From contig JAQGDQ010000070.1 in the NCBI GenBank assembly GCA_030141605.1, forward strand, positions 370,001-434,000: 64,000 nt of DNA, in the 5' to 3' direction. The notes beneath the pieces were generated by a model, which ran no database searches, was not told where the DNA came from, and worked only from the letters and a program-made list of their open reading frames with translations. This stretch comes from Tubiluchus corallicola. Taxonomy: Eukaryota > Priapulida > Priapulimorpha > Priapulimorphida > Tubiluchidae. Positions 13,456 through 53,602 of this stretch are shown here, one piece after another (within the stretch, counting starts at the first letter, position 1; the number at the start of each line of letters is the position of its first letter). The position numbers and the translations under genes are program-made.

Positions 13456-13471
13456 ATGATCAGATTGCAGT

Positions 13472-13807
13472 ATGGGAATCATACGAGCGCCTCGTGATCA
13501 TTTCCTTAGTGATCATGATGAGGTGATCATTGAAGATGATTATTTTCTACTGGTAAATGACGACGAAATTGCTGCAAATGTCGCTGACGAGGACAGCCAT
13601 CGACGTAGACGAGCTAAGCAAAAATTTCGTCCAAAAGCCACTGGAGGGAGCAAGTCTAGCGTATGTGGAGGCAAACCCAAGACCGGGAAACGGGGACGTC
13701 GCTATGAAAACACACTTTTCCTGCTCAATTTGGAGGAGGATGAGTTTGGACCTGAGCAGTTGAGCATTCATGATTTCGTACCTGAGCACTTGTCAGCATT
13801 TGCACAG
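13472..13807 (+). CDS. R3HDM4: R3HDM4 coding exon 1
   Basis: From the ATG to CACAG before GTACCT, ending in phase 0. It encodes the basic region and the ENTLFLLNLEE block. Reading through the donor meets a stop after two codons. Confidence 0.85.
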
Positions 13808-15604
13808 GTACCTTAACTAAAGGTGCTTTACTGAGTCACCATCTCAGTAAACACGCTTTTGTTGAGTGTCAGTTTCTTCTAAAAGTTACTGGCTAAATAA
13901 TCTATATTTATAACAGGCAAGTACTTTGTGTTAACACATTAAATACTGTCAAAGGTGTATTACATTTGATGATATTATTAACATTTTTTATCTCACATAT
14001 GGTATCATCTTGAAGGTCACTAAGTAGATGCATATTTTTTTCAAAATTTAGTAATTTGTTTAGCATGACAAGTAGATAATTTAAGGACTATAATGATGTT
14101 ACTAGGATTTTATCACTTAATTACTAACAATTGAAATATCTACATTTATAATCAGTTAGTTTTACCACATTCAGGAAACAATTTCACTGCTTCCAATAGT
14201 AGGCAGAGGCAGAGCTAACATAGTAAACAATTTACACTGATTGTTTTGCTCAGTAACATTGTTTTTCCACGACATCACACCCGTTATTAGTTACTACCTT
14301 GGTCTGCAAGACCCATTTAATGATGTTTGATAACAATTAAAAATCAGGATAAACTAGTATGTGTGCTTTTGGTATGTAAATGCACTTTTTTCAATTGTAA
14401 ACTATATTTTCTTCGCTGTTGACGATGATAAATTGATGATGGTGACAGTACTAATTAGCACAAGATATTAATGTTCAAATGTACTGTCATACGTAAATCG
14501 CTGGTGGTATCGGTAGTGATCGTATCAGTGATGGCACAGTTAAAATTGTTGGGGGTGCTGCTTCAGAGAATTTTTAGCCATTGTTTTGATATTCTATAAA
14601 ACGAAACAAACATATGAAAGTAAAATTTAGTCAAAAGGAAACTCTTCCTTATACTTGCACAGTAGGGTTGGCACTGCGGGAGCTCTTTCTACCTAGCGTG
14701 CAGCTTCTTATCTCGGACATGTACGCATGCTGGAACTGTGAGACATCCAAGTAATTCTTTGATTTTTTTCATGAGCTAGAGAATGGCTACTGACATTAAG
14801 GTCAAAGATTATATAATGTACAAGTATAAAGAAAGAATTAAAGAAAAAAATACACACTATATTGAATGTTATCGATAATATCGAGTGAAAATAGGGAGTG
14901 CTGCAGTTCCGCAGTGCCACTGGTGGTAGCAGTTGTTGATAGGCAGCAAAGCATGTTGTCTGTTTTAGTTCAGTATGTAGTATATACAGCATATCAAAGA
15001 GAAAAGCTAATGAAATTTCAAAGCTTTATGAAGATGACCTGCCTTTCTGTTGCAGCTTTTGGCTGAACGAGAAAAGATGAAGATCTGGAACGAATTTGTC
15101 AACATGTCTGAAGATGAACAGGAGGATGTCCTGAAGAAAGGTAGATGGCATCAGAGGTCTACGTTCGGCAAGATAACCGAGGAAGAAGAAGACGACGATG
15201 AAGAAATGGAGAAAACTGACAAGTCCTTGGAAACTATAGGAATAGATGACAAACGAGTGAAACATCCGTCATACAGCTCTGCTCAGTGTTTCTCAAACAT
15301 AGATGCTAAGCTTCAAACGATGCTGCGCAGGGGACATGTCCCGTTGGGACTAATGTCCCACTTGGAAGACGAGGTGAGGTCCTTCTTTGTTGGCAGTCCC
15401 GACCTGGTCATGGTGTCGCGGCTGGAAAGTGGATTTGAGCGGCGCATTCTGCATGCTGTCTGCCAGTACTTGGGGCTTCATTCTCATAGTTATGACATAG
15501 ATGGGATACGTCACACGCAGGTCGAAAATCCATGGCATTGTTTTGAACCACCCTGTATGACACTGTCAGCATATTTAGGCAGTACATTTTTGCATGAAAC
15601 CTAA
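13472..15604 (+). CDS. R3HDM4: R3H domain-containing protein 4-like, two coding exons
   Basis: The gene codes for about 294 residues: exon 1 (13472-13807, 112 codons), an intron with GT at 13808 and AG at 15054-15055 (phase 0), and exon 2 (15056-15604, ending TAA). Vertebrate R3HDM4 is about 268 residues. Shared blocks in order are a basic stretch followed by YENTLFLLNLEED, IWNEFVNMSEDEQEDVL, HPSYSSAQCFSNIDAKLQ, then an R3H region with FERRILHAVCQYLGL (R-x3-H), and a tail ending in LSAYLGS. R3H domains bind single-stranded nucleic acid; the cellular role of this protein is unclear. The ATG is preceded by an in-frame stop at 13457. A TTGCAG ending at 13470 could be the acceptor of a 5'UTR intron. 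ATTAAA at 15638 is a possible poly(A) signal. The acidic run EEEEDDDEE is notable. Confidence 0.88.
15056..15604 (+). CDS. R3HDM4: R3HDM4 coding exon 2
   Basis: Starts after CTTTCTGTTGCAG in phase 0 with LLAEREKMKIWNEF. It carries the acidic run, the R3H region and the stop. Confidence 0.87.
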   Translation, partial: LLAEREKMKIWNEFVNMSEDEQEDVLKKGRWHQRSTFGKITEEEEDDDEEMEKTDKSLETIGIDDKRVKHPSYSSAQCFSNIDAKLQTMLRRGHVPLGLMSHLEDEVRSFFVGSPDLVMVSRLESGFERRILHAVCQYLGLHSHSYDIDGIRHTQVENPWHCFEPPCMTLSAYLGSTFLHET

Positions 15605-16925: not shown

Positions 16926-17819
16926 TCACACGTTTGCACCACCTAACAACTTGTAAAATGCAGCTTTAAATGTAGAATACGAAGCTGCATATATAACGGG
17001 ATTGACAGCACTGTTAGCATAGCCCAGCCAAGTCAGAATGTGCACGTGCTGCCATCTATCGACCGGGTTGACCAACTGCTCGGAGAAAAATGGTCCCCAG
17101 CACAAAACAAAAGCTATGAACACAATAGACAGTGTCTTTGTTGCTTTCATTTCCATGGCTAATTTTATTTTTGCTTGCGACTGCAGCTGAACCAAATGGT
17201 GGACTTTCCGTGTCTGGTTCCATGCCTTCTTCCATATAATTATGTAAAACACAGCAATGATGGTGACTGGAACAATAAACCCAAAGAAAGCATCAGCAAA
17301 GTAGAAAATTTCCCAAGTCTCTCTGCTACTGTCGTAGTAAAACAAGATACACAGCGCACAAGGTTCAACAGCAGCAATGCACCAGGTGATAAGCAGTGCA
17401 AGCACCACTGTTCTTGTTGTTGCAAGTACGTTGTATTTAATTGGAAACACAATGGCAAAAAACCGATCCATGGAAATCAAACATATGTGATAGATGCTAG
17501 AACCCGTGGCAAGAATGCCAAGGGATTCGTCTACAAGAGCTAAGAGCCTGTTTGAATGAAAACGAGAGTTTATTTTCATTGGTACTAAAAGCACGCCAAC
17601 CAGCAAATCAGCTACTGCTAGGGATGCAACTACAAAATTTGTTTGTGTTTGCAACTGTTTTGTGGTACAGACAGCAGCTAAAACCAAAACATTGCCGAAT
17701 ACTACTGCGATGCCCGTCGATAAATATAGTACCAAAAATGACACATTCGACATACACGTGTGCAATTGTCCCAGTAAAACTTCATTTGAAATGTTCATTC
17801 CAGAGTGATTATACACCAT
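16926..17819 (-). CDS. Intronless class A (rhodopsin family) GPCR, orphan
   Basis: One exon of 297 residues with seven hydrophobic segments. Class A landmarks: GN in TM1 (N43), LAVADLL in TM2 (D71), DRF at 118-120 in place of DRY, W146 in TM4, P184 in TM5, CWGPFF at 240-245 in TM6 and NPVIY at 273-277 in TM7, followed by a short amphipathic helix-8 segment. The CWGPFF and NPVIYA style resembles amine-like receptors. However, counting back from D118, position 3.32 is Gly (not the amine-binding Asp) and 3.25 is Ala (not Cys), and no Cys is seen in the second extracellular loop. The ligand is therefore unknown and an aminergic assignment would be unsafe. AATAAA lies on this strand at 16902-16907, about 20 bases past the stop. 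The product would be a plasma-membrane receptor; the loops and tail are short. Confidence 0.9.
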   Translation of the reverse strand: MVYNHSGMNISNEVLLGQLHTCMSNVSFLVLYLSTGIAVVFGNVLVLAAVCTTKQLQTQTNFVVASLAVADLLVGVLLVPMKINSRFHSNRLLALVDESLGILATGSSIYHICLISMDRFFAIVFPIKYNVLATTRTVVLALLITWCIAAVEPCALCILFYYDSSRETWEIFYFADAFFGFIVPVTIIAVFYIIIWKKAWNQTRKVHHLVQLQSQAKIKLAMEMKATKTLSIVFIAFVLCWGPFFSEQLVNPVDRWQHVHILTWLGYANSAVNPVIYAASYSTFKAAFYKLLGGANV

Positions 17820-17829
17820 TTTGACTGTG

Positions 17830-19560
17830 AACGAAACTTACGCGTACAATAGCTGAAGCACTGCTGTCACTGGTGTGTTTTAGCAGACTACTTGAACATT
17901 TTCACCTTCAAGGATTACTATAAATTTTCAGTACTTTCTTAAGATGAGCATACGACCCTAAACTTCCCTTTAGAACTCGTTTAACAGCAACTAACTAAAT
18001 AGCAGTGTTAAGATGCCTTGCGCAATACGTAACAAATGCCTCATATCTAGATGAAGAAAGTGCCTCTAATTACTCAGACGAACACAAAGGATTCATACTT
18101 CGTAAATGAAGCCTATATATTTGAACATATCACCACAACCGTCTATGGTTTAGAACCAATTTGCACTTATTAACAAATTAATAGCGTATGTTTACACAGT
18201 TAGTTCACACTAAGTACTGTCGCACGCAGGTGGTTATGTCCACAAAATAGTATCCCACAGCTTTATTACTAGCTACAAGCTAATAATTACATCAGCTACA
18301 TAACTATAACACTTGTGTAATATTATCACAACTCATCATAATAGTGAAGTGTGTAACTGTAAACCAGACTGTTTACAAAACCTCGGACATGCAGCTGAGC
18401 TCACTAGAGCGAATAAAAATTTACAAGTGGATGCATATCATGAACTTGCAAACAAAGGCAACAATGATTATAATGTAACATGCACGGGAAACAAAATAGG
18501 GTAGAGTTTAAATAGACTGTCCTAACTGCCTACACTTGTAGCATATTCCCAGTTGAAACATAACCCTCCAAGTGTTCTTGCTTAAATTTTGGAAAAAAGT
18601 AGCAAAAGCTGATGAACTAAGAACCATTTCTACTGCAACCTGGGATTACACCATGGAGGTTGTAGAATTCTGAATTTCCATGATGGGGTTCCAAATAATG
18701 ATCAAATTATACAAAACCTGATTGCAAAATTCATGTTGTTAATTAAGTCACAATTTATTAATTATTTTAATTCAAGACGGCCAAAGGAACGAGATGTAAA
18801 AATGAGGATTGTGCCTCTGATTTGATCCAGGGATATTGAACTTACATTATAAAGTTTATTATATTGCTCCTTAATCACATCAGCATTTTCCAAGTTTTAG
18901 TTCGCTTTTCTAGATTAACTACTAACTAGTTATTTTTTATTTAATTTAGTACCAAGAATAATCAAAAGGCAATTCGCTAATTATTAATGCATAATTTAGC
19001 AGTAGCTACATGAATTTTTCTTATAATGTACAGTAATTTATTAATAGTCATTGATTATCATGCAAAATTAATTATCCATACAAGCAGCAGTTTGCACGAC
19101 AACTGCTGTTTATTATAATTACAACACCATAACAAAAAACATCGCTGTAAAAAATACCATAACTATTGTACAACTGCTGGAAAAATAAATTATCAGTTTT
19201 CTTTGACTCATTTTCCACTGCGCAGCCAAAACTGAGACAAAAAACTTGACCAGTTTCTAATCCACGCCACTGCTTTTCATCACGATAACTGTAAGAAACA
19301 TAATAACCTAGACACAAGCTACTGTAATGCATAAATATTATTTAGTAAAAAAATAAATGTAGCCAAACATGGGCAATACGTGTACATAACAAATACACAT
19401 AATTAGTTAAACAGTGATTACAGTTAGTAAACAAAGAACTGTCTATAACAATTTCTTGTAAACATTTGTATGCCCTTTATACACCAAAGACAATTTTGTA
19501 CCAAATTCAGCAGCCATTCACACGTTTAACAATGATTACAGCTATGAAGGTGTTAAGATA
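17830..19560. other. Non-coding DNA between GPCR and TDP1 genes
   Basis: Includes the upstream flank of the receptor gene and the 3' flank of the TDP1-like gene. Short frames at 18313 and 19072 show no known motif. Confidence 0.45.
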
Positions 19561-19568
19561 GGCTGACA

Positions 19569-19645
19569 CTACACACGAGGACACCAAGAATTACCATGGC
19601 TGTCTGGTTTATCCAAATACGGAATGTCCCATACCCATGGACGAT
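19569..19645 (-). CDS. TDP1: TDP1 exon 14, C-terminus
   Basis: [20 protein letters not shown], then WCPRV and stop; human ends DRPWIWNIPYVKAPDTHGN. Confidence 0.92.
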
Positions 19646-22600
19646 CTGAAATAATAAAAAGCAACATGATAAAAAAGAAAAAATCGTCATTTGTATAAGA
19701 ATTGTCTATTATATAGGCAAGGAAAGAAATACTAAACAACTGCCTTATCAATTAAGTGACTTTTGTAAAAACGACTTCATCTTGGTTAAATCACATGAGA
19801 GCTTATGCTGTTCAAAAAACATTGGTTCAGAAGTTTTCATTAAACAGCCCATCCCAACAACAGCGGTGGCATTCGAAAATTTGAATTCAAGCAAAAACAG
19901 TAAAGCCTCTTCATACTCTTCATGAACTTTACGTAGTTCAGTGGAATAGGAACAATGGGCTAAAGTTTACAATTCCCCATACACGAGAAATTAGTTCATG
20001 AATTGGATTACGGTTAGGGTTCAAGCTTAGAGTTAGGGTTCGTTTAGGATTAGTGCGGAGTTAGGGTTTGGGTATTTAAACTGTGTGGGGAGTTGTAAAC
20101 TCCTTCTTAACACTGAATGCTAAAAAATTTGATTTCCAACAAATTTGCTGCAAAATATAAAATTCCTTCTCACCTTCCTCTGTGTATGGTGTAAGTGGAA
20201 CATCAAACGGAACAGGAAATGCTTTACTAACCGACTTCTCTGTAGAATGTTGAAACAACGTAAACGAATCTTCGCCAGTCTGACAAGGTAATTGTATTTT
20301 AGTTACTTATTTATAATAAATGAGAATGAGATTGTTAAAAAACTAAATAAAAAAGTTTGCTAGAACTGAAGTAACTGTGTCAAATGTTAAAATAATTAAA
20401 CAGGAGGATTTGAATAACAAAAAAGAGCAGTGATGCATTTCCATATATTTAGCTCAGTTGCTGTAGTTCAGTTGTTATGACACTAACTTTGTATACTGAT
20501 ATATAGTAATATTTCTTAAAAAAGGATTGGAGCAATTATTAGAAAATATCACATAATAAATAAACTAAGAAGGCATAACACAACACACCATTATGCAATA
20601 TCTTTAGGGGAAAAATGAAGGAAAAGCATAAAGATACCATAAATACGATTTTTACTGAATTCAGCAATTTATAACATGATCCATAATATTTATGATTTTG
20701 TGATAAATTATGCAAAACACAAAATCGTACATGTGACACGACTGATTTTCTGCTCTTTTCTTTTTTCTCTTCAGGTACCATAATTTATTACAAATCAAGG
20801 GCCTGCACACACTACTGCAAAAGGACGGGAGTAAGCATAAAATACCTACAAGGTGCTTGGGCAAAAATAGAACTCCCAATTCGTAAGAACGAATCATCAG
20901 TTGAGAACCGTTTTTTTCCAAAGCGCCCCAGGCTGCTTTAGACAGATTTGCACTACAAAGAAAAAACACAAACCCATTTCAAGTAACAACACTATGATGC
21001 AAAATGTCGTCATCAAACTTTCTGGTAAACAGAAAGTGAACTGCATTAATCTTTATTTGCCTACTTTCATAAGTGGTAATTACAGCTACTTCCTTTTACT
21101 AAATTTACCAAGATATTAATGTCATATAAAGATCTTTAAACTTTCACAATATTCTACACATTATTTACTGTTGTAATTTTATTGTATATAATAATTCTAC
21201 TTTTTAGTATTTAATTTTGCCAGACCTAACTAAAAATCCTAATCTTAATTTATTCTCATTATTCTAACGTATGCTATTGTAACGTGTAATTCTTGTATGT
21301 AATTTACTTATTTAAAATTGTCTCTTTTTAACTTTACTAACTACATGGACCATCACGGAAACATTGTTTACATGCAATTTTAATGTATCCATGTAAAAAA
21401 TAAATTTCTATTCTGTTCTGTTCTCTCTGAAATTGTTATTCACCGTTATGCCTAAAGTACTGTAAGAAATGTAAAGCAAAAATTAAGGCATATCTTTTGA
21501 TTCACACTCTATAATCGTAAATTCTAGTACATTATGAATTGTAACTTCCATTTGTTGTTCTCCCTTTTTATGTAGATAATACTGCGTAAGTTTAATCAAA
21601 CAAAGATAGAAAATATAGATGCATTATAAACTAAAATTTACGATTTTTAATGCAAGCTTTTGTGTTCTACCTTCTTATTTAACAGCCACCTTCTCACATA
21701 ATGCAAAATCTGCTATCAAAACTTTAAAAAGTCACCTTGTCACCAGAAACCAGGCAGCTTGACAAAAACCCGGTGAAATTCTAGCGTAAGATTTTATGTG
21801 AGGTGATGCACGGCTTCGTCCAAATACATCAGCTTTCCACTGACTAAAAAACAATGTATCACACTTACATGGTTACACCAGCAAATGCAGGGAAAAGTCA
21901 GTGTATCATTGTGCCTCACAGTCACATGTTTATATAATTACATGCAGCGAATACTCGATTATGCAAGTGCAAATGATTATCATAGTTCATACAATATGCT
22001 CGTGACTTAAAGTTTGACAATCTGTAAGACAACATTCTGAAAATTGTTATTACTACTCACCATTAACTTAGTGCTATGCGGATAATATTTCTGTTTTACC
22101 TCACATTCGCAAGATTACAATACTTGAAACAAAAAAGACATGACTATACGTGAATGCATAAATGGGCAAAATAGTAAGGCAAATTCATTCATCGACCACA
22201 GATATGTTTGTAATCAAGAATGATAACAGCGAACACAAAAGCATTATTCACTTCAATACTTACTGAAAAAATGTGTGTAGGTATGGTTGCTTCTTAGCTG
22301 TATTAATGCTATACGGAAGAGAACCACCGGCGGGCCAGCCTTCCAAGCTAGTTCTTACATTATCTATGCTAGGAAATATCTAAAATAAAATGTTATATTT
22401 AAACATTCAAGTTAGATAACGTACAGAGAGAGAGAGAATGGAACCTTATATTCAGTAACATTTGACCACTGATATTTGACCAGTAACAAAAGAAAATGGC
22501 AGATAATTTTAATAAAAGCATTCCTCTATTTTTGAAGATATCTCTGTGGCAAAAATTGACATTCATAAATTTATTACAAAATTTTAACAATAACAACAAA

Positions 22601-25600
22601 AAACACGTCTCTATTTATATTTCAAAACATTTTTTTCAGTCCATATTTGAATGTTTGACGTATCGAATGGCATCCACTTTGTACATGCCACTCTAAATTT
22701 TGAGAAAAGAAAAAATTTTTATTAACTAGGCAGATTAATTCTACATACTTAAGCCTTCACGAACCTGCCAAACTGTGCACTTTATTTGAGTAACACTAGC
22801 AAATGATACACTAATTATTACAGAACGGAATGTATTAGATGTCTATTCGCCTACATTCGTAATCTGTAATTAGTGGCACTTCCGTTCACAAACTTTGCCA
22901 AGAACAGCATCAAACCTTTTAAAGCTTTCAAGTAATTTTCCACATCTTTTTCTCTATGAAACTCTCTTTTACTGCTAGGCGTGAAGTTATTTTTTAGCAA
23001 ATTTAAAACAAAAGTGGCGTACTTTTGCTCGGCACACCACTAATGAAAATTCCAGTATACCATGAATTAACTTTTATTTGGAAAAGTAACAACTTTTGTA
23101 TGCATTTTCTATTCAAATCTGGGCACACACACACACTGATCTCTGGTGTGAATGAAGAAAGAAAGCAAAATCATATGAAGCTTGGTAACACTCCAGTGGT
23201 TTAGCAAGAATCTATTTGAAGAAACTTACTAACTGTAATTTAGGCAGCTTTGCTAATTTCCCACCAGCATTGGACACTTTGCATTGACTAAGACTTGTCA
23301 GCCACTCTGCACATAACCAGTTGTCTTTACTACTGCCCAAGGAACCAATGCTGGAGAACTGACCAATGACTGACCAATCGTGTACCTTGCCTTCCTCTGC
23401 TCCATGTGTTTGTAGAACCTAAATATGCAGAAAAATCATTAGTAGTCATCCAACATAGTTATGCCACATTTGCACAGTTTTAAAAAAATTACCTACTATA
23501 AGCAAGACTTGCTATTAAGTAATTTAATTAGTAGAAAACTCTGGTAGGAATGAGTTATTATTACAGTGATATACAACAGGCATACATTATGATATAAACA
23601 CTGCATCCCAGGTATCAGTTTAAAAGTCCAACTGCATCAAAAAGTCTTTTCTACGTTGATAGAAAAAAGAATAACTGCTTATCATTTTCTAAGCCGTGAG
23701 TCAAATTACTGCTTTCTACATTTTTCTGCTTTAGTACACCACTGGAGAGTTTAGACAGTTAAGCACTATACTGGAAGTGTTAACACCTCATTAAGATGTA
23801 ACATTTACTACACGGAGGTAAGAAAAAGAAGCAGAAAATATCTATAGTATGTAACATATACTATGGACAGGGAAGCAGAAAAAACTAGAAATATGTAAGA
23901 TATGTTCCAGTTTAAATGCTGTTCAGTTCAAAACAGAAGCTAATCCTGTAAGTGTCTGTTACCCAAACACAGATTTAGAATCAACAATATTACGCAAATG
24001 CAATGTAAGCTGCACATACTTTTCTCAGCTTAAGATGACCATACTTAGTTTTCTGCTCTCCGACATGGCGTCCAGGAATAGATGCAATAATGTGAACCCT
24101 AGACACAAAAACAAAGGGCTAAAAGGAAATAACTAAATGTATCATTTGTATACACTTAAGAAATTTGAGAAGAGTGAGGAGAGTGCTGAGACAGATTATA
24201 CATGGTCTTGGAATCTAGAATGAAAGTGGGTTTAGACAAAGCAAGTTCGATAATGAAGGATATACCCATAGGGAGGACTTTTTCCTTACAATATTATTTA
24301 TACCCAGGAATTTGAAAATAATAATGTATAACAGATGGCTTGGACCAATTCCCCAAAGCACAAGAAAACCATCAAGTTACATAAAGCTTAAAAAATTTGT
24401 CTTGAAATTTTATACCACTTACATACTGCCTTTTTGCATATACAACTTGCGTCGGCATTAACGCTGTATAAAACATGTAAATTTAAACTCCCGAGATGAC
24501 CGTTAGACGCAGCCATTTTGACGATAAGTCATTTGAAACAAGTTTAGATAGCATTCTGTGAAGTTTGAAAAAATAATCAGAGCACGTGTCACTAACTGAG
24601 TAAAATATAAAATTGCTGTATCTTGTCAATAAGATTAAAAATACGTTTTTGGTTAGTGAGTGGCGCACACTGGAAGATGAGTCAGCAACATTTTACCAAT
24701 TGGTGGAAGCATTTTAAATAATTAATAATTTTCTTTTTTAATTACGTAAGTCTCTCAAGCATGTAAGCGAAATGCGAACTAATATAATTTTGCATAGAAT
24801 GTTTTTGGGACATAGTTTAACATGTACTTTTCTTCTCCTGAGTTACATTTGCGTAAGTGACGTCGTCGGTACAGTGTCGCAGGAAATTTAAAATGAAAAC
24901 AAAAAAATCCTTTCAATGCGAGTACGATATATGCATAAAATTGCTATAAAGTAATATAATTTCTCAAGGCGATTTTTCTGAAACATATTTTAGGTACTCC
25001 TTTTCTTGTCCTTTAAGAACATTCAACAATACATACGGCACGTAATGGTTGTATGTATTGTTGAATGTTCTTAAAGAACAAGAAAAGGGGTACCTAAAAT
25101 ATGGTTCAGAAAAATCGCCTTGAGAAATTATATTACTTTATAGCAATTTTATGCATATATCGTACTCGCATTGAAAGGATTTTTTTGTTTTCATTTTAAA
25201 TTTCCTGCGACACTGTACCGACTGCGCCATTACATGACGTCACTTACACAAATGTAAATCAGGAGAAGAAAAGTACATGTTAAACTACCGTATTTTCCCA
25301 TGTATAAGAGACCCTTGTGTATAAGAGACCCCTTCAATTTTTAGGCAAAAATTCTGGAAAAAAGTTTTTTGGTAATGAATAACTTTATTCATCATAGAAA
25401 TTTAGAGGGTAGAGTACAACTTTTTCAACTCAGTGCGGTACTGAAAACAAAATAAAACCAGTTAATGTGTTGTAGAAAAAGAGTACTGGTATATATTAAA
25501 GTGCGTACCTGCAAACCTGTAACAAGAAAAGAGAAAACGAGGAGATAATGCCTGTGTCACGATGCTTGTATTGCTTACAACCGCTTCATAGTCGAACGCG

Positions 25601-28600
25601 ACACGCCTTGCTTAGGCTGACTCATCTCCTTGACCTCTGCCGACGTATCAATGACGTCGACGGGCATGCAGAGAGCTTATGCAGATGCGTTGATTGGCTG
25701 CAGAACAATCGATTTCTCTCCAATACCAAAGAGACATTTAAAAAAATAATAACTTACCCGGTACATTAATTTTATCATTAGAATTTAGCCACGGAGAAGA
25801 TTTATTGAAAGGAAACTATAATTATTCGAAATAAAACAGTTGTAGAGCACTTATTTCTTTAAAATCATTAGTGTCACAATTTATGCATCTTATTGAAAAG
25901 ACTTACTCCCATGTATAAGAGACCCCCTATTTTTAAAGTGAAAATTCTGAGCAAAAAAGGGTCTCTTATACACGGGAAAATACGGTATGTCCCAAAAAAC
26001 ATTCTATGCAAAATTACATTAGTTCGCATTTCGCTTACATGCTTGAGAGACTTACGTAATTAGAAAAGAAAATTATTAATTATTTAAAATGCTTCCACCA
26101 ATTGGTAAAATGTTGCTGACTCATCTTCTAGTGTGCGCCACTCACTAACCAAAAACGTTTTTTTAATCTTATTGACAAGATACAGCAATTTTAAATTTTA
26201 CTCAGTTAGTGACACGTGCTCTGATTATTTTTTCAAACTTCACAGAACGCTATCTAAACTTGTTTCAAATGACTTATCGTCAAAATGGCTGCGTCTAACG
26301 GTCATCTTGGGAGTTTAAATTTACATGTTTTATACAGCGTTAATGCCGATGCAAGTACGGCCGTATGTATTGTTGTATGTATACGGCCAGCACGTACAGC
26401 AATTTTTGATTGTGTCCACAAAAATGATGACAGCACATTACATGACTAACCACGTAGGCTCTATTGTTAGGGTCCAAAAATACAAAATTTCAATAATAAA
26501 ATTTTACTTCCAGTTGTGCACTGATTTTTTTTCCGGAGAGCAATAATTAAAGATTCTATATTTTACCTTGCACTAGACATGTCATGTTGACGTATTATTT
26601 CTATCCAGTCTTGCAATGGTTTGGTTTTATACGAGGATAAATACTCCATCAAATCTTGTTTGAAATTTGTCGGAGATTCACCGGCAGCATTCAAATCGCT
26701 TCCTTCGGGTAGCTTAGGAAAAAAGTCAGACATCCAAATCCTGTAACACCAGGACAAAAGTTTACAGAAGCTTAGAGTTTTCTGACAGACTTTGGCAAAA
26801 AATTTTAATCAATAAATACACTGCAGCATATTAATTATTGTTTTACTTCACTATTAGTATTAACTCACTATTTCCTAAACAAACTTATTATTATGATCAC
26901 AGTAATATTGAAGAAAAAAAATAAATTAACATAAAATAAAATTTTAAATTATAACACTTACGACACCCAAGTTGAAACAATTTGTGTCCTTTAAGTATCA
27001 AGTGAAATATTTAATGCTTCAAAATTAAACTTAAGTATAAAAAGCACAAAAACGATGTAAAATCAACTTGCTTATTTGCACTCCTCATAATTATGCCATA
27101 ATCGCAATAGAGATAATTTCAAGAAGCAATCTATTGATAACAGCACAAAAACAAAGAAAGTTCTACTCTAAAAATGTTTTGCAGTACTTCTCTAAACATG
27201 AATTTTGAGTGAATAAAATAAGGCCTAGTTAAGTATAACAAGTGTATTAAAATATTTTTCAAAATTGTGGCCCCGTACCACAAATCTAGAACACCAAAGC
27301 AAACACTAATACAGCTTTAGCAATGATGAACTAATTAATGCACAAAGTTGACTAGACACCCTCAATTTTCAAACAAAAAATGCTATAAAAACTTGTCCAG
27401 AACAGTTTTGATGATAGGCTCGACTAATTTTAATGTTTAAAGCAGGAATGTCATTTTTTATTTTGACCTCCTAGTTACCACTTTTTAATTTTGACTGTTT
27501 CCCTGACAACTAAGTGACAAACCATTATAATCATTATTTACTCACCCCTGGGTCTTTTGACTCCAGTCTTCATGAATCAGATTACTTGTATGAATAACCA
27601 CCCTCATTCCATCATCATATTGCAGCAGCATCATCTTAGTGTGATGGGTGCCAAACATCATCTCCAACTTAGCCTACAAACAAGTAAATAAAAATTTTAG
27701 AATACAAAATGCATCAGATACACATCACTGCTACCAATCTAATGAAGCACATTCATGTTTTTTGCAGTAATCAAGTTCTGCCTTCTTTGACACGCCATTA
27801 ACAATACAAAATTAAAACAAAAACACACCGTTTCACCATTTTACTATTCTCCTTCGTACATGCAGTACAAGAGTTAAAAGTTTGTCGAATAGACGGTCAG
27901 CCCTTCTGAGCATCATGCTTATATAATAAATACACTACAATGCTTATAATTATTTCAAATAACTTCCATTTCGAATGCAGCAACTAGTGCGGTCTCATTT
28001 AACAGACATCTTTATTATCATCCTGTACCTGTTTCAAACTGCTAAATGCTTCATCAGGGACAATAAAACGAATCAGATATTGTTATAACTCCGACTTCAC
28101 GTAACTTTTGGCAACATTATGATTGCAGCCTTCTCGAATGTAAAGGCTTGTTCAGGTTTGTGTTTGCTTATCCCTGCTCACCAAGTGTTCTACAAATTCC
28201 ACACAATTTAGCACCGACAGTGTTGAGTTCATTACTTTTAAAAAGTAATTTGTCATGACTACTAATAACTTTCGAAAAATTATAATCAAATCACTCATTA
28301 CTGATTACTTTTACCAAGGGTAAGCCCTTACTGATTACTCTTTATTTTTGGGTGTTAGTTTGAGTGATACTTTGGCGAAAAGTGTGCAACTCTTTTGCTT
28401 TAGCGAAATCAGAGCATTATGTCTGCAATATCCCTTTACATATGTCATTAACTTAATAAAATCTACAATTTTCCAGCAAAACTAACTGCAACATTTTATT
28501 GACAAATTGCTAGGCTAGTCTCACAGTCACAATGTAAGCAAGCTCTTACTTGCTGAGCTGACGACGAAACCTGATCTTTGTCACCTGAATCCATTGCAAA

Positions 28601-31600
28601 CAACTAAAACATGTACAAACACAATAGCCTCAGCCATTTTAGTGGTTTTACTGAGCTACCTACATTTTCTTACAGCATATGCAGCCTTGCACGTGACCAA
28701 GCATTGAGTGTTAGAACAATCAGCTACTACAGCTGTATTTAGAAGTTTTTATGACGCAGTCAGTCTGAACTCTAAATGTCAAATAAGGTCATTATTTGAG
28801 GGCAATAATGAACCACTGTGTGCGTACAGGCATTGTGTGGCACTAAACAAGGCAACTAAATGATCAAACTGCCTAAATTTAAAATGTTCTTTTTGGAAAG
28901 ATAAGTAACTCAAGTTTAGCAGTGTCACAGCCAAAGCAACAAGTAATCGCATTGCCAGAGACTAAACAGAAAGCAGAATAATTGCATTACATTGCTCGTT
29001 ACTATAAAAGATAATGTGATTACAATAATTTGTTACTACCCAACACTGACGACTGATATTGCTACACTAATGTGTGTAATTTACACATTATATACAATTT
29101 ACATGTAGTTGTAAACAGAAGCATAACAAGTGCGTGTGACACCCGAGGGCAAAAAACTTCTGGTGCCCAACCTTTTTAATGTTTTGATCATTTGTTTTGT
29201 TGGGGAAACTACAAATTGTGCATGTTTTTTGCTTCCTTGAGTCCTATTTCCCTTTTTCAATATGACGGGATAAAGATAAATGACTTTTTCTAAGAATCAC
29301 CCTAAGTTTGGTTTGCAGTACTACACCAGAATAACTCTTTCATGCATCGGTCTAGGAATTTTGTTAGCACGACAGTCGTTAAACATTCAACTCCAGCATT
29401 AAAACATGCAAAGATTGTGAAAGGTACAGAACGCTACAGGTTTTCACATTAATACAATTGGCATTTAGAGAAACGCCACAGTATATCTCAAAATTATCGA
29501 CCTGCTAAACCACATTCCACCCTACGTACGTGTTGAATAACTACATTAGTTTTTTTAAGTGCAGTAAATGATGACGTTTGACTAAGCAATTTTACTGTAG
29601 TTTGAAAACTTTTGTTAATGTCGAATTAATAATTAATAATCATTAAACTCTAGCATAATTTTGTGCCCCCTCACTCTTGCACCAGGGGATGATTACTACC
29701 TGTTGCACTCCTTTTGCTAACCTCTGGTTGTAACTAGCACGCAAAAAATAGATTAAAAGCTGGTTGTTCATATTAGTTATGCACACCTCTAACAATTATA
29801 CAATTTGTTAAGATCCACATTGCATGTACGCAAAAAATAAATAAATAAAAGTCGTAGGCATAGCAAACAGCCCCACCTGGCAAAGAGTGACACTGGGATA
29901 ACGTTCTGCCTGCTCATGAAGTGCAGCTTTTTCTCCTCTCTGTGCACCATGTACAATAAGCAACGGTTTATTTCTGTCATATAATTGAAATAAATACATA
30001 ACGGCTTTTACTTCATTAATACTGTAAACATCATACATGTTTTAAATATTTTTAAAAAGGTCCGACATTACTACAATTTTAAACACGGAAGGATTATGTG
30101 AAGTTTGTGCATCCATGTTTTAATAACAATAACAAGTTAATAAACAGTAGCAACATTAAAACAGATGTGTTGTTAAAGCGCACATTGTAAAAAAATTTTA
30201 AAATATCATAAGTAACATATCATGCCAACTTAAGAAAAATTTTGCTTCTGGCGTATTACTGATATGGGCATTTGTTTGGGACTAGTTTTAGTAAAATTTT
30301 TCATGTCAATATCAAATTTTGATGTGACAAATTAAAATATTAGCTACATTTGTGAATTTCGTCACGAGTAAGAAGTTAACGATGTTTGAAATCCAGATGC
30401 TCTAATGATCCTACAAGGGTAGTGTGACATAACAGCAATAAATTACAATTATTGTGTTCAAAGCAAAAATAAATCACAATTGTGTTAGACATTGATTAAA
30501 ATTAACTAACTACAGATTTCTAAATCATAAAAAAACAACTGTCATATGAATCACCAGTTTTCCGATTAAACGCAAGGGGCAGGTCTCACAAAGTCACCGC
30601 TAAGTTACTGTCGTCGTTATTTCAGTCGTTACTCAGTGAAACTGGGCCCAGTACTTTATCAGCATTACTAAACAAATACAACAACATTGCACCTCTCACC
30701 TAAACTGAAGTGGATACTGTTCTACCAGCCAATGAATATCAATGCAGTAGTTAAACTGAAACACAAACACTCGGTAAAACTAGATGGTAATTGCTGCAAA
30801 ACTCGCAAGAATCACAGATTCTGCATAGTCTGTTAATACCATGACACTGTCCTTGCATTAGTTTTGCAGTTTTCTAACTCTAGATAGAGTAATTTCCATC
30901 AGTAGAATAAGGTCATCTTGTGATCATAATAAATATGTTACAAGACACACTGTCTTTATTCCTGGCATATATCTGCCGGCTGATTTCTGCATTACTTGTG
31001 GTGAGCCAAAACTTTGCAATATCAAAACTTCGTCAAAACTCAAGATTGCAAAACAAAATTTTCCTAAGACAAAAAGAGAAACTGATTGAAATATTTCTAC
31101 TTTTATTTCCCAGAGGACTGGAAATCACCGAAGTCTATGTTATTTGTGGCCCAGCACTATTTTATTTGTTGGGTCTAACAACAAGAGACTAAGCAAAACT
31201 TTTTGCTGCAATTCTGCATAGTTTTTTATCTTACCTGAGCAGAAGAAACTAAGTTTCCTAATTCTTCAGACAAAATTTCTGCAAGAAAATGTAATTTTAA
31301 TGTTGATTAACCTTTTTCTTACAATAATAATACAAAATGGTAATTTTCTGCTGCGTCAAAACTATTTTTGCAGTTGCCTAACAGAAATCAAGTACACGAA
31401 AAGTTGTATAGCAAGAAAATGAAATATTTGAAACTTTAAAATTACCTGCTAGAAGGAAAAGCCAAGAAACTGACAAAAAAAATGAAATTTGATGCTTCTT
31501 TTCTTAAACTATCTACCTCTAGGCAATATGAAAATAGGTACAGAGAAAATATCAAACTTCTATACCTTTTATATGCATGGATATAAAATTATTTGTCTCC

Positions 31601-32657
31601 ACAGACAAGCCTCGAACTTTAGAAAACATGAATCCCCATGGTTGACTCATAGAAAGCATGTCTGCTGGTGAAACTCTTGAAGACTTGGAGTCGGAGATTT
31701 TAACTCGTTTTGGAACTGGTCCTTCCAATTCATTTGTACTCATACCTGCAACATGGCATAAATGTCAATTTTTAATTACTTATTAAACTTTACAAAACTT
31801 ACAACTTACTATTGTAATAACAAGGTATCAATAGTTGCAAACTGAAGGATGAAGAATTTCTTCCAAATATAGCTGCTAAACTTAGCGCAAATATGAAACA
31901 ATGAAAATCACCAATCTAGACAAAAAATAATATTAATGTTGTTATTATTTATTATTATTATCATTAAATTATTATGCTTATACCAATTATAATTTCGAAT
32001 GTTCTGTGATTGTATTAATCTGCTCTGATAACAACAAGGGAATCCACACATATTTATAAAAATCAATATGCCTTCCAGATAACAATATTCAGTTGTTTGA
32101 CCTAGCTAATAACAAATAACCATTATTATTATTAAAATGAATATTTAGTGATTCTTTAAATACCAAACTGACCCGCACCTTTTTTGGGATGCCTGTATTC
32201 CTGGAAATGCACTGGGTTTTTCCTGTAGCACTTTTCTCCATATTTGCACATGGGCCTTGCATCTACACCTAAAGAAAAATTACAAAAAACAAACACCATC
32301 AAACAAGCGCAAAATTTTCCCGTAAGGGAAAAAGCAAAGACATGGGTTCACCTTTCTAAGTTTTATTAAAATAAATGAATTCAGTTGCTATGTTAGAAGT
32401 ACAGTATGTCCCTAGTAACATTGTAATTTTGCCTTATGATATCAAATTAGAATAAGTCTATACTCCTCAATTTATGAGATTACAAATAAGCCCAAAAAAC
32501 AGTAGTTGGTGCTCTTCCAATAGTTTCTAACTAAAGTTCTCATTTCAGCTAATTAAACAAAGGATATAAAGTAAAAAACTGCCACCTTACCAGCCACTGT
32601 TATGGGTGCAGCATTCTGAGAATCAGAATCAGAGTCAGACTCTGATACTTCAAGCAT
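19569..32657 (-). CDS. TDP1: Tyrosyl-DNA phosphodiesterase 1-like, with N-terminal PBZ finger
   Basis: TDP1 hydrolyses 3'-phosphotyrosyl links left by trapped topoisomerase I and cleans other 3' adducts in nuclear and mitochondrial DNA. I placed 14 exons, 32657 down to 19569. All phases agree except between exons 4 and 5, where a tiny exon of 3n+2 bases is required; with a 5-base candidate the product is 536 residues (human 608). First HKD motif GTHHTKMML with H188 and K190, N208 in HTSN; second HKD motif PHIKSY with H421 and K423, N444 in [10 protein letters not shown]. The ending [13 protein letters not shown] matches human. The N-terminus is short: a Ser/Asp run, then a PBZ-type zinc finger (exon 2, about residues 23-52) that vertebrate TDP1 lacks as far as I know, then a basic KRVKIS segment. 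The start ATG has an in-frame TGA upstream. Introns carry several transposon relics. Confidence 0.92.
19964..20101. mobile_element. Short inverted-repeat element with TTAGGG-like core
   Basis: Ends AGTTTACAATTCCCCATACA (left) and the inverse of AGTTTACAACTCCCCACACA (right) enclose several GTTAGGGTT units. 138 bases, in the intron between TDP1 exons 14 and 13; looks like a MITE. Confidence 0.65.
20174..20279 (-). CDS. TDP1: TDP1 exon 13
   Basis: [15 protein letters not shown] and [16 protein letters not shown]; human has FPVPYDLPPELY. Ends in phase 1. Confidence 0.87.
20850..20952 (-). CDS. TDP1: TDP1 exon 12
   Basis: [19 protein letters not shown], then [16 protein letters not shown], almost identical to human. 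Phase fixes the donor at CTT before GTAGGT, not at the better-looking AG-GT four bases later. Confidence 0.9.
21140..21428 (+). mobile_element. LINE 3'-end fragment
   Basis: A T-rich tail with CATCACGGAAACATTGTTTA, then CATGCAATTTTAATGTATCC, AATAAA and a terminal TTCTATTCTGTTCTG microsatellite. This is the arrangement of L2/CR1-type LINE 3' ends in many animals. Inserted in the TDP1 intron between exons 12 and 11, opposite to the gene. Confidence 0.5.
21736..21843 (-). CDS. TDP1: TDP1 exon 11: second HKD motif
   Basis: The CA|T codon joins exon 10 to give [11 protein letters not shown], then PHIKSY with the second His and Lys, and AAWFLVT. Confidence 0.92.
22264..22379 (-). CDS. TDP1: TDP1 exon 10
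   Basis: [38 protein letters not shown], nearly the human sequence in this region. Ends in phase 2. Confidence 0.93.
23230..23418 (-). CDS. TDP1: TDP1 exon 9
   Basis: 63 codons: [17 protein letters not shown] then [12 protein letters not shown], matching human VVGQFSSVGSLG and WLCSEF. Ends LPKLQL before GTAAGT. Confidence 0.9.
24020..24098 (-). CDS. TDP1: TDP1 exon 8
   Basis: [20 protein letters not shown], then HLKLRK; matches human [20 protein letters not shown]. Ends in phase 0 before GTATGT. Confidence 0.9.
24445..26356. mobile_element. Long palindromic (foldback) element in a TDP1 intron
   Basis: The left arm, 24445-25036, is the near-perfect inverse of the right arm, 25051-26356, once a 700-base insertion at 25288-25987 is removed. 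The 14-base loop is 25037-25050. Outer ends are ACTTGCGTCGGCATTAACG and its inverse. The matching 61-residue frames at 24483-24668 and 26133-26318 are reflections of the arms, not genes. The right arm has one extra stretch of about 13 bases near 25225. I see no clear target-site duplication. Confidence 0.9.
25288..25985. mobile_element. TA-flanked DNA transposon nested in the foldback
   Basis: The 27-base terminal inverted repeats (25288-25314; 25959-25985) differ at one position and begin CCGTATTTTCCC. The element is flanked by TA (25286-25287; 25986-25987), and the empty site AAACTATGTCCC is preserved in the left foldback arm. GTATAAGAGACCC units recur inside both ends (near 25319 and 25913). 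The 73-residue frame at 25548-25769 has no transposase motif, so it is non-autonomous; TA duplication fits the Tc1/mariner/pogo superfamily. Confidence 0.88.
26567..26740 (-). CDS. TDP1: TDP1 exon 7
   Basis: [30 protein letters not shown] and [14 protein letters not shown], matching human GIWLSPLYPRI, GESPTHFKADL and LKEWIDVIHKHDLS. Confidence 0.92.
27546..27673 (-). CDS. TDP1: TDP1 exon 6: first HKD motif
   Basis: [20 protein letters not shown] and [13 protein letters not shown]. The nucleophile His, the Lys and the partner Asn are all present. Confidence 0.92.
27985..28065 (-). mobile_element. Retroelement relic with hammerhead-like core, copy 1
   Basis: Minus strand: GTCC, CTGATGA (28051-28057), a short helix, GAAAC (28031-28035), then a decayed form of ACACGTGT and AGGATGATAATAAAGATGTC. 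It is the same family as the pair at 38385-38545. In a TDP1 intron. Confidence 0.55.
29877..30021 (-). CDS. TDP1: TDP1 exon 5
   Basis: [11 protein letters not shown], then NKPLLIVHG and SVTLCQ, aligning with human KKPILLVHG and NISLCQ. The frame upstream of the acceptor at 30022-30023 is closed by a stop. Confidence 0.83.
30700..30704 (-). CDS. TDP1: Candidate 5-base micro-exon of TDP1
   Basis: Exon 4 ends in phase 0 but exon 5 begins in phase 2, so a piece of length 3n+2 is missing. TTTAG here is flanked by CTTCAG and GTGAGA and would give SAQ-F-S-INEV, like human SAQ-FN-Y. Other solutions are possible. Confidence 0.28.
31235..31278 (-). CDS. TDP1: TDP1 exon 4
   Basis: 44 bases, [15 protein letters not shown], aligning with human DILSPLFGTLVSSAQ. 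It ends in phase 0 before GTAAGA. Confidence 0.85.
31566..31745 (-). CDS. TDP1: TDP1 exon 3
   Basis: Phase 1 to phase 1. Basic linker [11 protein letters not shown], then [12 protein letters not shown] and FISMHIK, aligning with human NPFQFYLTRVSGV and ALHIK. The internal ATG at 31741-31743 is not the gene start, because an acceptor (TTGCAG) precedes it. Confidence 0.8.
32179..32268 (-). CDS. TDP1: TDP1 exon 2: PBZ zinc finger
   Basis: Phase 1 to phase 1, 90 bases. It encodes [28 protein letters not shown]-x-Y-G-x2-C-x-R-x-NP-x-H-x5-HP, the complete poly(ADP-ribose)-binding C2H2 finger signature. Confidence 0.85.
32591..32657 (-). CDS. TDP1: TDP1 exon 1
   Basis: ATG, then [18 protein letters not shown]; ends in phase 1 at GTGGCTG before GTAAGG. 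The Ser-Asp repeats look like CK2-type phosphorylation sites, as in the acidic human N-terminus. Confidence 0.75.
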
Positions 32658-42735: not shown

Positions 42736-42754
42736 GTAATTAATTAGTTCAGGG

Positions 42755-53602
<10,848 letters not shown>

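What the first reader, a model, noticed from the sequence alone, without database searches (positions are those of the whole stretch)
32179..32268. A complete PAR-binding zinc finger (PBZ) fused to TDP1
The second coding exon encodes [14 protein letters not shown] then RHP, which fulfils every conserved position of the PBZ finger known from APLF and CHFR. It is symmetrical in phase (1-1), so it can be gained, lost or skipped without breaking the frame. Human TDP1 lacks it but is recruited through contact with PARP1 and by PARylation. Here TDP1 would read poly(ADP-ribose) directly and find trapped topoisomerase I sites itself. I do not know whether this architecture has been described in other invertebrates.
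Basis: partly seen in the sequence, partly recalled or inferred. Interest (0 to 1): 0.8.

Follow-up and report, generated by a model that had tools for sequence, protein, structure and literature searches.

The report
PAR-reading zinc finger on TDP1
In this unnamed animal genome the DNA-repair enzyme TDP1 appears to carry its own finger for binding poly(ADP-ribose), the cell's damage signal, so it could be drawn straight to trapped topoisomerase lesions, which the human enzyme is thought to reach with help from PARP1.

Summary
Exon 2 of a complete 15-exon TDP1 gene (minus strand, 32657-19569) encodes a full PBZ finger: 50.7 bits to Pfam PF10283, all 26 positions, within a 537-aa spliced model that also matches Tyr-DNA_phospho at 461 bits and keeps all six catalytic H/K/N residues. 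The exon is 90 bp, phase 1-1, with usable splice sites. Exon 3 already holds the start of the catalytic region, so the finger hardly belongs elsewhere. In the 343.5-Mb assembly every TDP1 match found lies in this gene. The one other PBZ found is on HPF1, a published precedent: fly HPF1 has a PBZ and binds PAR, human HPF1 does neither (PMC4858568). A PARP1-like gene is present.

Best reading: direct PAR-dependent recruitment of TDP1 to PARylated TOP1 lesions. The fusion is well supported by sequence; PAR binding and recruitment are inferred. No transcripts or related animal genomes could be examined. I found no paper describing PBZ on TDP1 in the searches named, which is not proof. New variant of a known kind.

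The parts
32591..32657 (-). Exon 1 (67 bp): start codon and short acidic N-terminus [23 protein letters not shown] (last codon split), ends phase 1
   Evidence: In-frame stop four codons upstream, donor CTG|gtaagg. The least certain exon: low complexity, no homology
32179..32268 (-). Exon 2 (90 bp, phase 1-1): PBZ finger [21 protein letters not shown]
   Evidence: PF10283 57.2 bits alone, 50.7 bits in full model; APLF E 4.5e-17; acceptor ttttctttag|GTG with 10 of 13 pyrimidines, donor AAG|gtgcgg, alternatives at 32173 and 32164, all phase 1
31566..31745 (-). Exon 3 (180 bp, phase 1-1): in-frame ATG at 31743, basic stretch [10 protein letters not shown], then start of TDP1 catalytic region ([14 protein letters not shown]..)
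   Evidence: Aligned to human TDP1 DML..PFQFYLTRVSG
31235..31278 (-). Exon 4, TDP1 catalytic region
   Evidence: aligned to human TDP1
30700..30755 (-). Exon 5, TDP1 catalytic region
29877..29973 (-). Exon 6, TDP1 catalytic region
27546..27673 (-). Exon 7, first catalytic set: H189, K191, N209 of the model
   Evidence: invariant with human; whole-genome hit
26567..26740 (-). Exon 8, TDP1 catalytic region
   Evidence: PF06087 45.7 bits (peptide with some intron residues)
24020..24098 (-). Exon 9, TDP1 catalytic region
23230..23418 (-). Exon 10, TDP1 catalytic region
   Evidence: PF06087 28.1 bits
22264..22379 (-). Exon 11, TDP1 catalytic region
21736..21843 (-). Exon 12, second catalytic set: H422, K424
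   Evidence: invariant with human
20850..20952 (-). Exon 13, second catalytic set: N445 ([10 protein letters not shown])
   Evidence: PF06087 55.9 bits
20174..20279 (-). Exon 14, TDP1 catalytic region
19569..19645 (-). Exon 15, C-terminus [25 protein letters not shown] and stop
   Evidence: AATAAA/ATTAAA signals further on, first at 19114

Best explanation
The locus is an intact TDP1 gene, the only one found in its assembly, whose N-terminal, non-catalytic part carries one canonical PBZ finger on its own phase 1-1 exon. Mechanism proposed: PARP1 (with its cofactor HPF1) makes poly(ADP-ribose) at TOP1-blocked breaks, on TOP1 and nearby chromatin; the finger, folded round zinc by C-C-H-H, grips PAR through the two tyrosines and the arginine that APLF uses; this raises the local concentration of TDP1, whose catalytic region follows after a linker of about 30 residues. 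When PARG removes PAR and TOP1 is cut down, the enzyme hydrolyses the 3'-phosphotyrosyl bond. SHOWN: sequence, frame, splice signals, both domains, catalytic and PAR-contact residues, no second TDP1 found, HPF1 and a PARP1-like gene in the same genome. INFERRED: expression of the joined mRNA, zinc and PAR binding, recruitment.
For: Both domains in one 537-aa open frame over 15 exons. Exon 3, directly 3' of the finger, already holds the TDP1 start, and exons 1-3 span 1092 bp. 57% identity to the human TDP1 fragment and six catalytic residues kept (human residues named in PMC10547559). The finger has the residues that APLF uses (Y381, Y386, R387 in human APLF; legend in PMC6264785): here Y32, Y37, R38. 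TDP1 profile over the genome: 7 candidates scored, 4 matches, all 4 in exons of this gene. The same genome has HPF1 with a PBZ and PARP domains (24 candidates scored, 15 matches on 7 contigs); the best one, L007, matches PARP1 at E 3.9e-44 and PARP2 at 2e-36. Fly PBZ-HPF1 binds PAR while human HPF1 does not (PMC4858568 passage). PBZ on a DNA end-processing enzyme has a tested precedent: SNM1A binds PAR and is recruited PBZ-dependently (PMC11199599 passages). TDP1-TOP1 contact in human cells rises with PARG inhibition and falls with PARP inhibition (PMC8373905 passages).
Against: No RNA-seq, protein or binding data. No related animal genome could be compared, so conservation of the exon is unknown. 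Exon 1 is low-complexity and has no homology support. Exon 3 begins with its own in-frame ATG, so a finger-less TDP1 (484 aa) could be made. A single PBZ may bind PAR weakly. In human cells PAR on TOP1 recruits TDP1 yet delays its action, so the finger could regulate timing more than speed. The genome search for TDP1 caught only 4 of the 13 catalytic exons of this gene, so a diverged second copy could have been missed. PARG was never searched successfully.
Confidence: 0.75

Rival explanations
1. Regulated cassette (overlaps in part with the main reading): the finger is skipped or bypassed in most transcripts (exon 2 skipped, 507 aa, or start at the exon-3 ATG, 484 aa), and only a minor or tissue-specific isoform reads PAR.
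For: Exon 2 is 90 bp and phase 1-1, so skipping keeps the frame; exon 3 has an in-frame ATG at 31743, two bases after its acceptor; the donor of exon 2 is not ideal, AAG|gtgcgg, with two competing phase-1 donors.
Against: The donor fits 7 of 9 consensus positions, the 14 donors of the gene ranging 6 to 8; the acceptor has 10 pyrimidines in the 13 bases before AG, the 14 acceptors ranging 7 to 11. The finger shows no decay (26 of 26 profile positions).
Confidence: 0.2
2. The PBZ exon is not part of the TDP1 mRNA but the end of a tiny separate transcript (exons 1-2, ending at the stop after GAGQFGI, 59 aa), an independent PAR-binding micro-protein.
For: If the donor is not used the frame stops after GAGQFGI (length counted), and an AATAAA lies further into intron 2 at 31953.
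Against: A phase-matched donor and the phase-matched acceptor of exon 3 enclose an intron of only 433 bases; I recall no PBZ protein of that kind.
Confidence: 0.04
3. The finger has drifted to another partner (mono-ADP-ribose, RNA, or a protein) and is not a PAR reader.
For: Profile matches do not prove ligand (no call bears on the ligand).
Against: All zinc ligands and the APLF PAR-contact residues are kept; fly HPF1 with its PBZ and SNM1A bind PAR.
Confidence: 0.05
4. Assembly artefact or chimaeric join placing an APLF-like exon inside the TDP1 gene.
For: Not excluded by read data, which were not available (no call).
Against: The window has no N, the contig is 726 kb, the exon sits between two phase-matched exons with its own splice sites; the only other PBZ found in the genome is on HPF1.
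Confidence: 0.02

Closest known systems
Human TDP1 (PDB 1qzq, 6dhu and others)
   Same: Whole catalytic region, 57% identity over the compared fragment, both H-K-N sets
   Different: Not among the three mammalian PBZ proteins of the published count (PMC4245714); human N-terminus described as disordered and variable (PMC10547559) and TDP1 works with PARP1 by direct contact and PARylation (PMC8095074)
APLF PBZ fingers (PDB 2kqb, 2kuo)
   Same: 15 of 21 (finger 1) and 14 of 21 (finger 2) residues identical, same spacing and PAR-contact residues
   Different: APLF has two fingers on an NHEJ factor; here one finger on a phosphodiesterase
Invertebrate HPF1 with N-terminal PBZ (fly CG1218; also present in this genome, L002)
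   Same: One N-terminal PBZ on a PAR-pathway protein whose human orthologue lacks it (PMC4858568)
   Different: Regulator of PARP1, not a lesion-removing enzyme; the two fingers of this genome share 12 of 21 residues
SNM1A (DCLRE1A)
   Same: One PBZ on a DNA end-processing nuclease, used for recruitment (PMC11199599)
   Different: Unrelated catalytic domain, weaker PBZ consensus (7 of 21 shared), also uses UBZ and PIP box
PBZ fusions in other eukaryotes: Dictyostelium Ku70, Ung, Rad17, Chk2 (PMC5087659); rotifer PARG (PMC4245714); DNA ligase E/K (PMC6264785, PMC10665377)
   Same: PBZ added to a DNA-repair or damage-response protein
   Different: None is TDP1 in the passages I saw

Membership tests
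PBZ / zf-CCHH (PF10283) | Profile match above the curated cut-off over the whole domain | tested here: met
   57.2 bits alone, 50.7 in the full protein, cut-off 22.7, positions 1-26 of 26
PBZ / zf-CCHH (PF10283) | C-x5-C-x6-H-x5-H zinc ligands | tested here: met
   C30, C36, H43, H49, same spacing as both APLF fingers
PBZ / zf-CCHH (PF10283) | PAR-contact residues Y, Y, R (APLF Y381, Y386, R387) | tested here: met
   Y32, Y37, R38 by alignment to APLF; roles from a figure legend in PMC6264785
PBZ / zf-CCHH (PF10283) | Binds zinc and poly(ADP-ribose) | not testable with these tools
   needs protein
TDP1 (PF06087) | Full-length profile match | tested here: met
   461.4 bits, profile 2-445 of 445
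TDP1 (PF06087) | Two catalytic H-K-N sets | tested here: met
   H189 K191 N209 and H422 K424 N445 are invariant with human in a two-row alignment; human residues named in PMC10547559
PBZ-TDP1 fusion in one mRNA | Spliced transcript joining exons 1-2-3 | not testable with these tools
   only phase and splice-signal support
PBZ-TDP1 fusion in one mRNA | Conservation in related species | tested here: inconclusive
   no TDP1 relative confirmed in viral contigs or the prokaryotic genome contigs; no animal genomes were searchable and G000 has no relatives held

The most novel reading that the evidence does not exclude
In this lineage TDP1 reads PAR directly through a built-in finger, possibly switched on and off by skipping its phase 1-1 exon, and PBZ fingers sit on both ends of the same pathway: on HPF1, which directs PAR synthesis, and on TDP1, which removes the lesion. 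The N-terminal step that in vertebrates rests on PARP1-TDP1 contact would here be a plain PAR-reading step, gained or kept in invertebrates and absent from vertebrates, as with HPF1.
Probability: 0.4. Interest if true: 0.65.

Novelty: new variant of a known kind. Interest (0 to 1): 0.5.

Why it matters
In the passages I saw, several routes are proposed by which PAR brings TDP1 to trapped TOP1 in human cells: direct PARP1 contact, PARylation of TDP1, and PAR on TOP1 itself (PMC8095074, PMC8373905). A natural TDP1 with a separable, well-understood PAR-reading finger makes the question directly testable: add, remove or mutate one 30-residue exon and ask whether recruitment no longer needs PARP1 contact. 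It also adds a second case, after HPF1, of a PBZ present on an invertebrate repair protein and absent from its human orthologue.

Tried and rejected
Plus-strand reading of the coordinates: unrelated, rejected. Relatives of PBZ-TDP1: viral contigs with the full protein (no pattern match), with the window/human alignment (82 stretches matched a pattern, 0 confirmed), with the C-terminal core (41 matched, 0 confirmed); genome contigs twice (51 matched, 0 confirmed; 30 matched, 0 confirmed); PBZ DNA pattern in viral contigs (0). A first form of that pattern lacked one base and missed the window itself; corrected. These collections hold viruses and prokaryotes, so their silence says nothing about animals. 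RNA families: none in the window at gathering scores. Papers describing PBZ on TDP1: none found. Term sets: 7 papers; 5; 0; 50, of which 20 listed; 4; 3; 1; 3,651 for any two of three terms, 8 listed, none with 'glaikit'. Of the 7 papers, I saw passages of 4 (PMC6264785, PMC10722394, PMC3547747, PMC11199599) and only the listing of the other 3. The library holds open-licence PMC papers only. Figure 1A and Figure S1A of PMC4858568, which tabulate PBZ proteins, and the 2008 paper that defined the PBZ were not seen; either may already list TDP1. Considered and not pursued: naming the species. The 343.5-Mb size, low G+C and PBZ-HPF1 suggest a non-vertebrate animal, perhaps a mollusc, but nothing tested it.

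Full report
What is there. The coordinates fall in a gene on the minus strand. I rebuilt it exon by exon from stop-free stretches, GT/AG signals and phase: 15 exons from 32657 to 19569, one open frame of 537 residues. At E up to 0.1 Pfam finds two domains in it and no others: PBZ (PF10283, 50.7 bits, residues 27-52, all 26 profile positions) and Tyr-DNA_phospho (PF06087, 461.4 bits, profile 2-445 of 445). The catalytic part, residues 81-535, aligns with human TDP1 (E 1.3e-172), at 57% identity over the fragment compared, and both H-K-N catalytic sets are invariant (residue roles from passages of PMC10547559).

The finger. Exon 2 (32268-32179, 90 bp, phase 1-1) encodes the whole finger. Its nearest solved relative is APLF (E 4.5e-17; 15 and 14 of 21 residues shared with the two APLF fingers). 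The zinc ligands and the residues that a figure legend in PMC6264785 names as PAR contacts in APLF are all present. The window contains one match to a degenerate DNA form of the finger against none in 100 shuffles, and one match to a protein form against none in 150 Markov windows; both patterns were drawn up after seeing the finger, so they show rarity only. The profile scores are the independent test.

Does it belong to TDP1? Exon 1 (start codon, 22 codons and one base, in-frame stop four codons upstream) ends in phase 1; exon 2 is phase 1-1; exon 3 begins in phase 1 and already holds the start of the TDP1 catalytic region. All three span 1092 bp. Splice signals of exon 2 are as good as those of the rest: its donor fits 7 of 9 consensus positions, the 14 donors ranging 6 to 8, and its acceptor has 10 pyrimidines in 13 bases, the 14 acceptors ranging 7 to 11. 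Two further donors, at 32173 (7 of 9) and 32164 (5 of 9), are in the same phase. Skipping exon 2 leaves an intact 507-residue protein. Exon 3 has an early in-frame ATG, so a finger-less start (484 residues) is possible too. Without RNA the share of each form is unknown.

The genome. The window is part of a 343.5-Mb assembly of 2344 contigs. A six-frame search with the PBZ profile scored 16 candidates and kept 2: this exon (55.6 bits) and L002 (42.8 bits). L002 is a 362-residue open frame whose protein matches HPF1 at 310 bits and PBZ at 37.9 bits. A PBZ split by an intron would be missed by that search, so APLF, CHFR or SNM1A may still exist here. A search with the TDP1 profile scored 7 candidates and kept 4, all in exons of this gene. 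It caught only 4 of the 13 catalytic exons, so it finds no second TDP1 but could miss a diverged one. A search with the PARP profile scored 24 candidates and kept 15, on 7 contigs; two neighbouring exons of the best locus (L007) match PARP1 at E 3.9e-44, ahead of PARP2 at 2e-36. In each of these three searches the 14 control genomes gave 0 matches; which organisms they are is not shown, so this says nothing about sensitivity in animals. The request for PARG did not complete.

Mechanism. Published passages give the frame. PARP1 and TDP1 are coupled and TDP1 is PARylated and stabilised (PMC8095074). PAR on TOP1 adducts strengthens TDP1-TOP1 contact, yet in cells the adduct resists TDP1 until PAR is removed and TOP1 degraded (PMC8373905). 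A PBZ on SNM1A binds PAR and aids recruitment (PMC11199599). Fly HPF1 with a PBZ binds PAR and human HPF1 without one does not (PMC4858568). From these I infer that the finger here tethers TDP1 to PAR at TOP1-blocked breaks. It is likely to help arrival rather than catalysis, and to be general for PARylated breaks rather than specific for TOP1. One PBZ may bind weakly alone: a passage in PMC6264785 reports about 1000-fold stronger binding by a tandem pair. Direct PARP1 contact or DNA binding by TDP1 may add to it.

What is known and what is not. PBZ fingers fused to repair proteins are a known kind: Ku70, Ung, Rad17 and Chk2 in Dictyostelium (PMC5087659), PARG in a rotifer (PMC4245714), DNA ligase E/K (PMC6264785, PMC10665377), HPF1 in insects, sea urchins and molluscs, which that paper calls a gain (PMC4858568). 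Mammals are stated to have three PBZ proteins, without TDP1 (PMC4245714). A study that compared TDP1 from bacteria to vertebrates notes a variable, disordered N-terminus in human and zebrafish and holds no 'zinc finger' in its main text (PMC10547559; supplements not seen). None of the searches turned up PBZ on TDP1; not every listed paper was opened. The library is open-licence only and the tables in PMC4858568 could not be seen, so the fusion may already be listed somewhere, and domain databases may well hold it. I therefore call it a new variant of a known kind and not a new system. All papers cited were seen as passages found by term, none read whole.

Limits. No transcripts, no relatives, no structure model (structure tool unavailable), species not named.

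Noticed in passing
L002 (G000:C1730:435087-435155 and surrounding open frame): HPF1 of the same genome carries an N-terminal PBZ in what looks like one long exon (362-residue open frame): Pfam HPF1 310 bits, PBZ 37.9 bits.
   Followed up: yes
window 42740-51484, plus strand: A synaptotagmin-like gene (named from recall of the sequence, not scanned) divergent from TDP1, with two alternative versions of the central C2B exon, about 50667-50800 and 51348-51481 (62% identical; flanks). Each appears to be 134 nt, so including both would break the frame: mutually exclusive exons, a pattern described for invertebrate Syt1 in PMC2823689 (passages).
   Followed up: partly
window 24445-26356, intron 8 of TDP1: Nested inverted repeats: arms 24445-24809 and 25992-26356 (365 nt, 98% complementary) around a second pair 24858-25036 / 25051-25229 (179 nt, 97%). 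Looks like a recent inverted-repeat insertion (inference).
   Followed up: partly
window 16926-17837, minus strand: 303-residue open frame without introns matching 7tm_1 (142 bits), a rhodopsin-type receptor, just downstream of TDP1.
   Followed up: partly
window 13460-15604, plus strand: Open frames matching R3H (25.3 bits, cut-off 26.8) and R3H-associated (24.8 and 18.4 bits, cut-off 25), all below the curated cut-offs; possibly exons of an R3H gene.
   Followed up: no
window 32159-32268 and 31953: If intron 2 is retained, the frame ends 7 codons after the finger and an AATAAA follows at 31953, so a short PBZ-only product is conceivable.
   Followed up: partly
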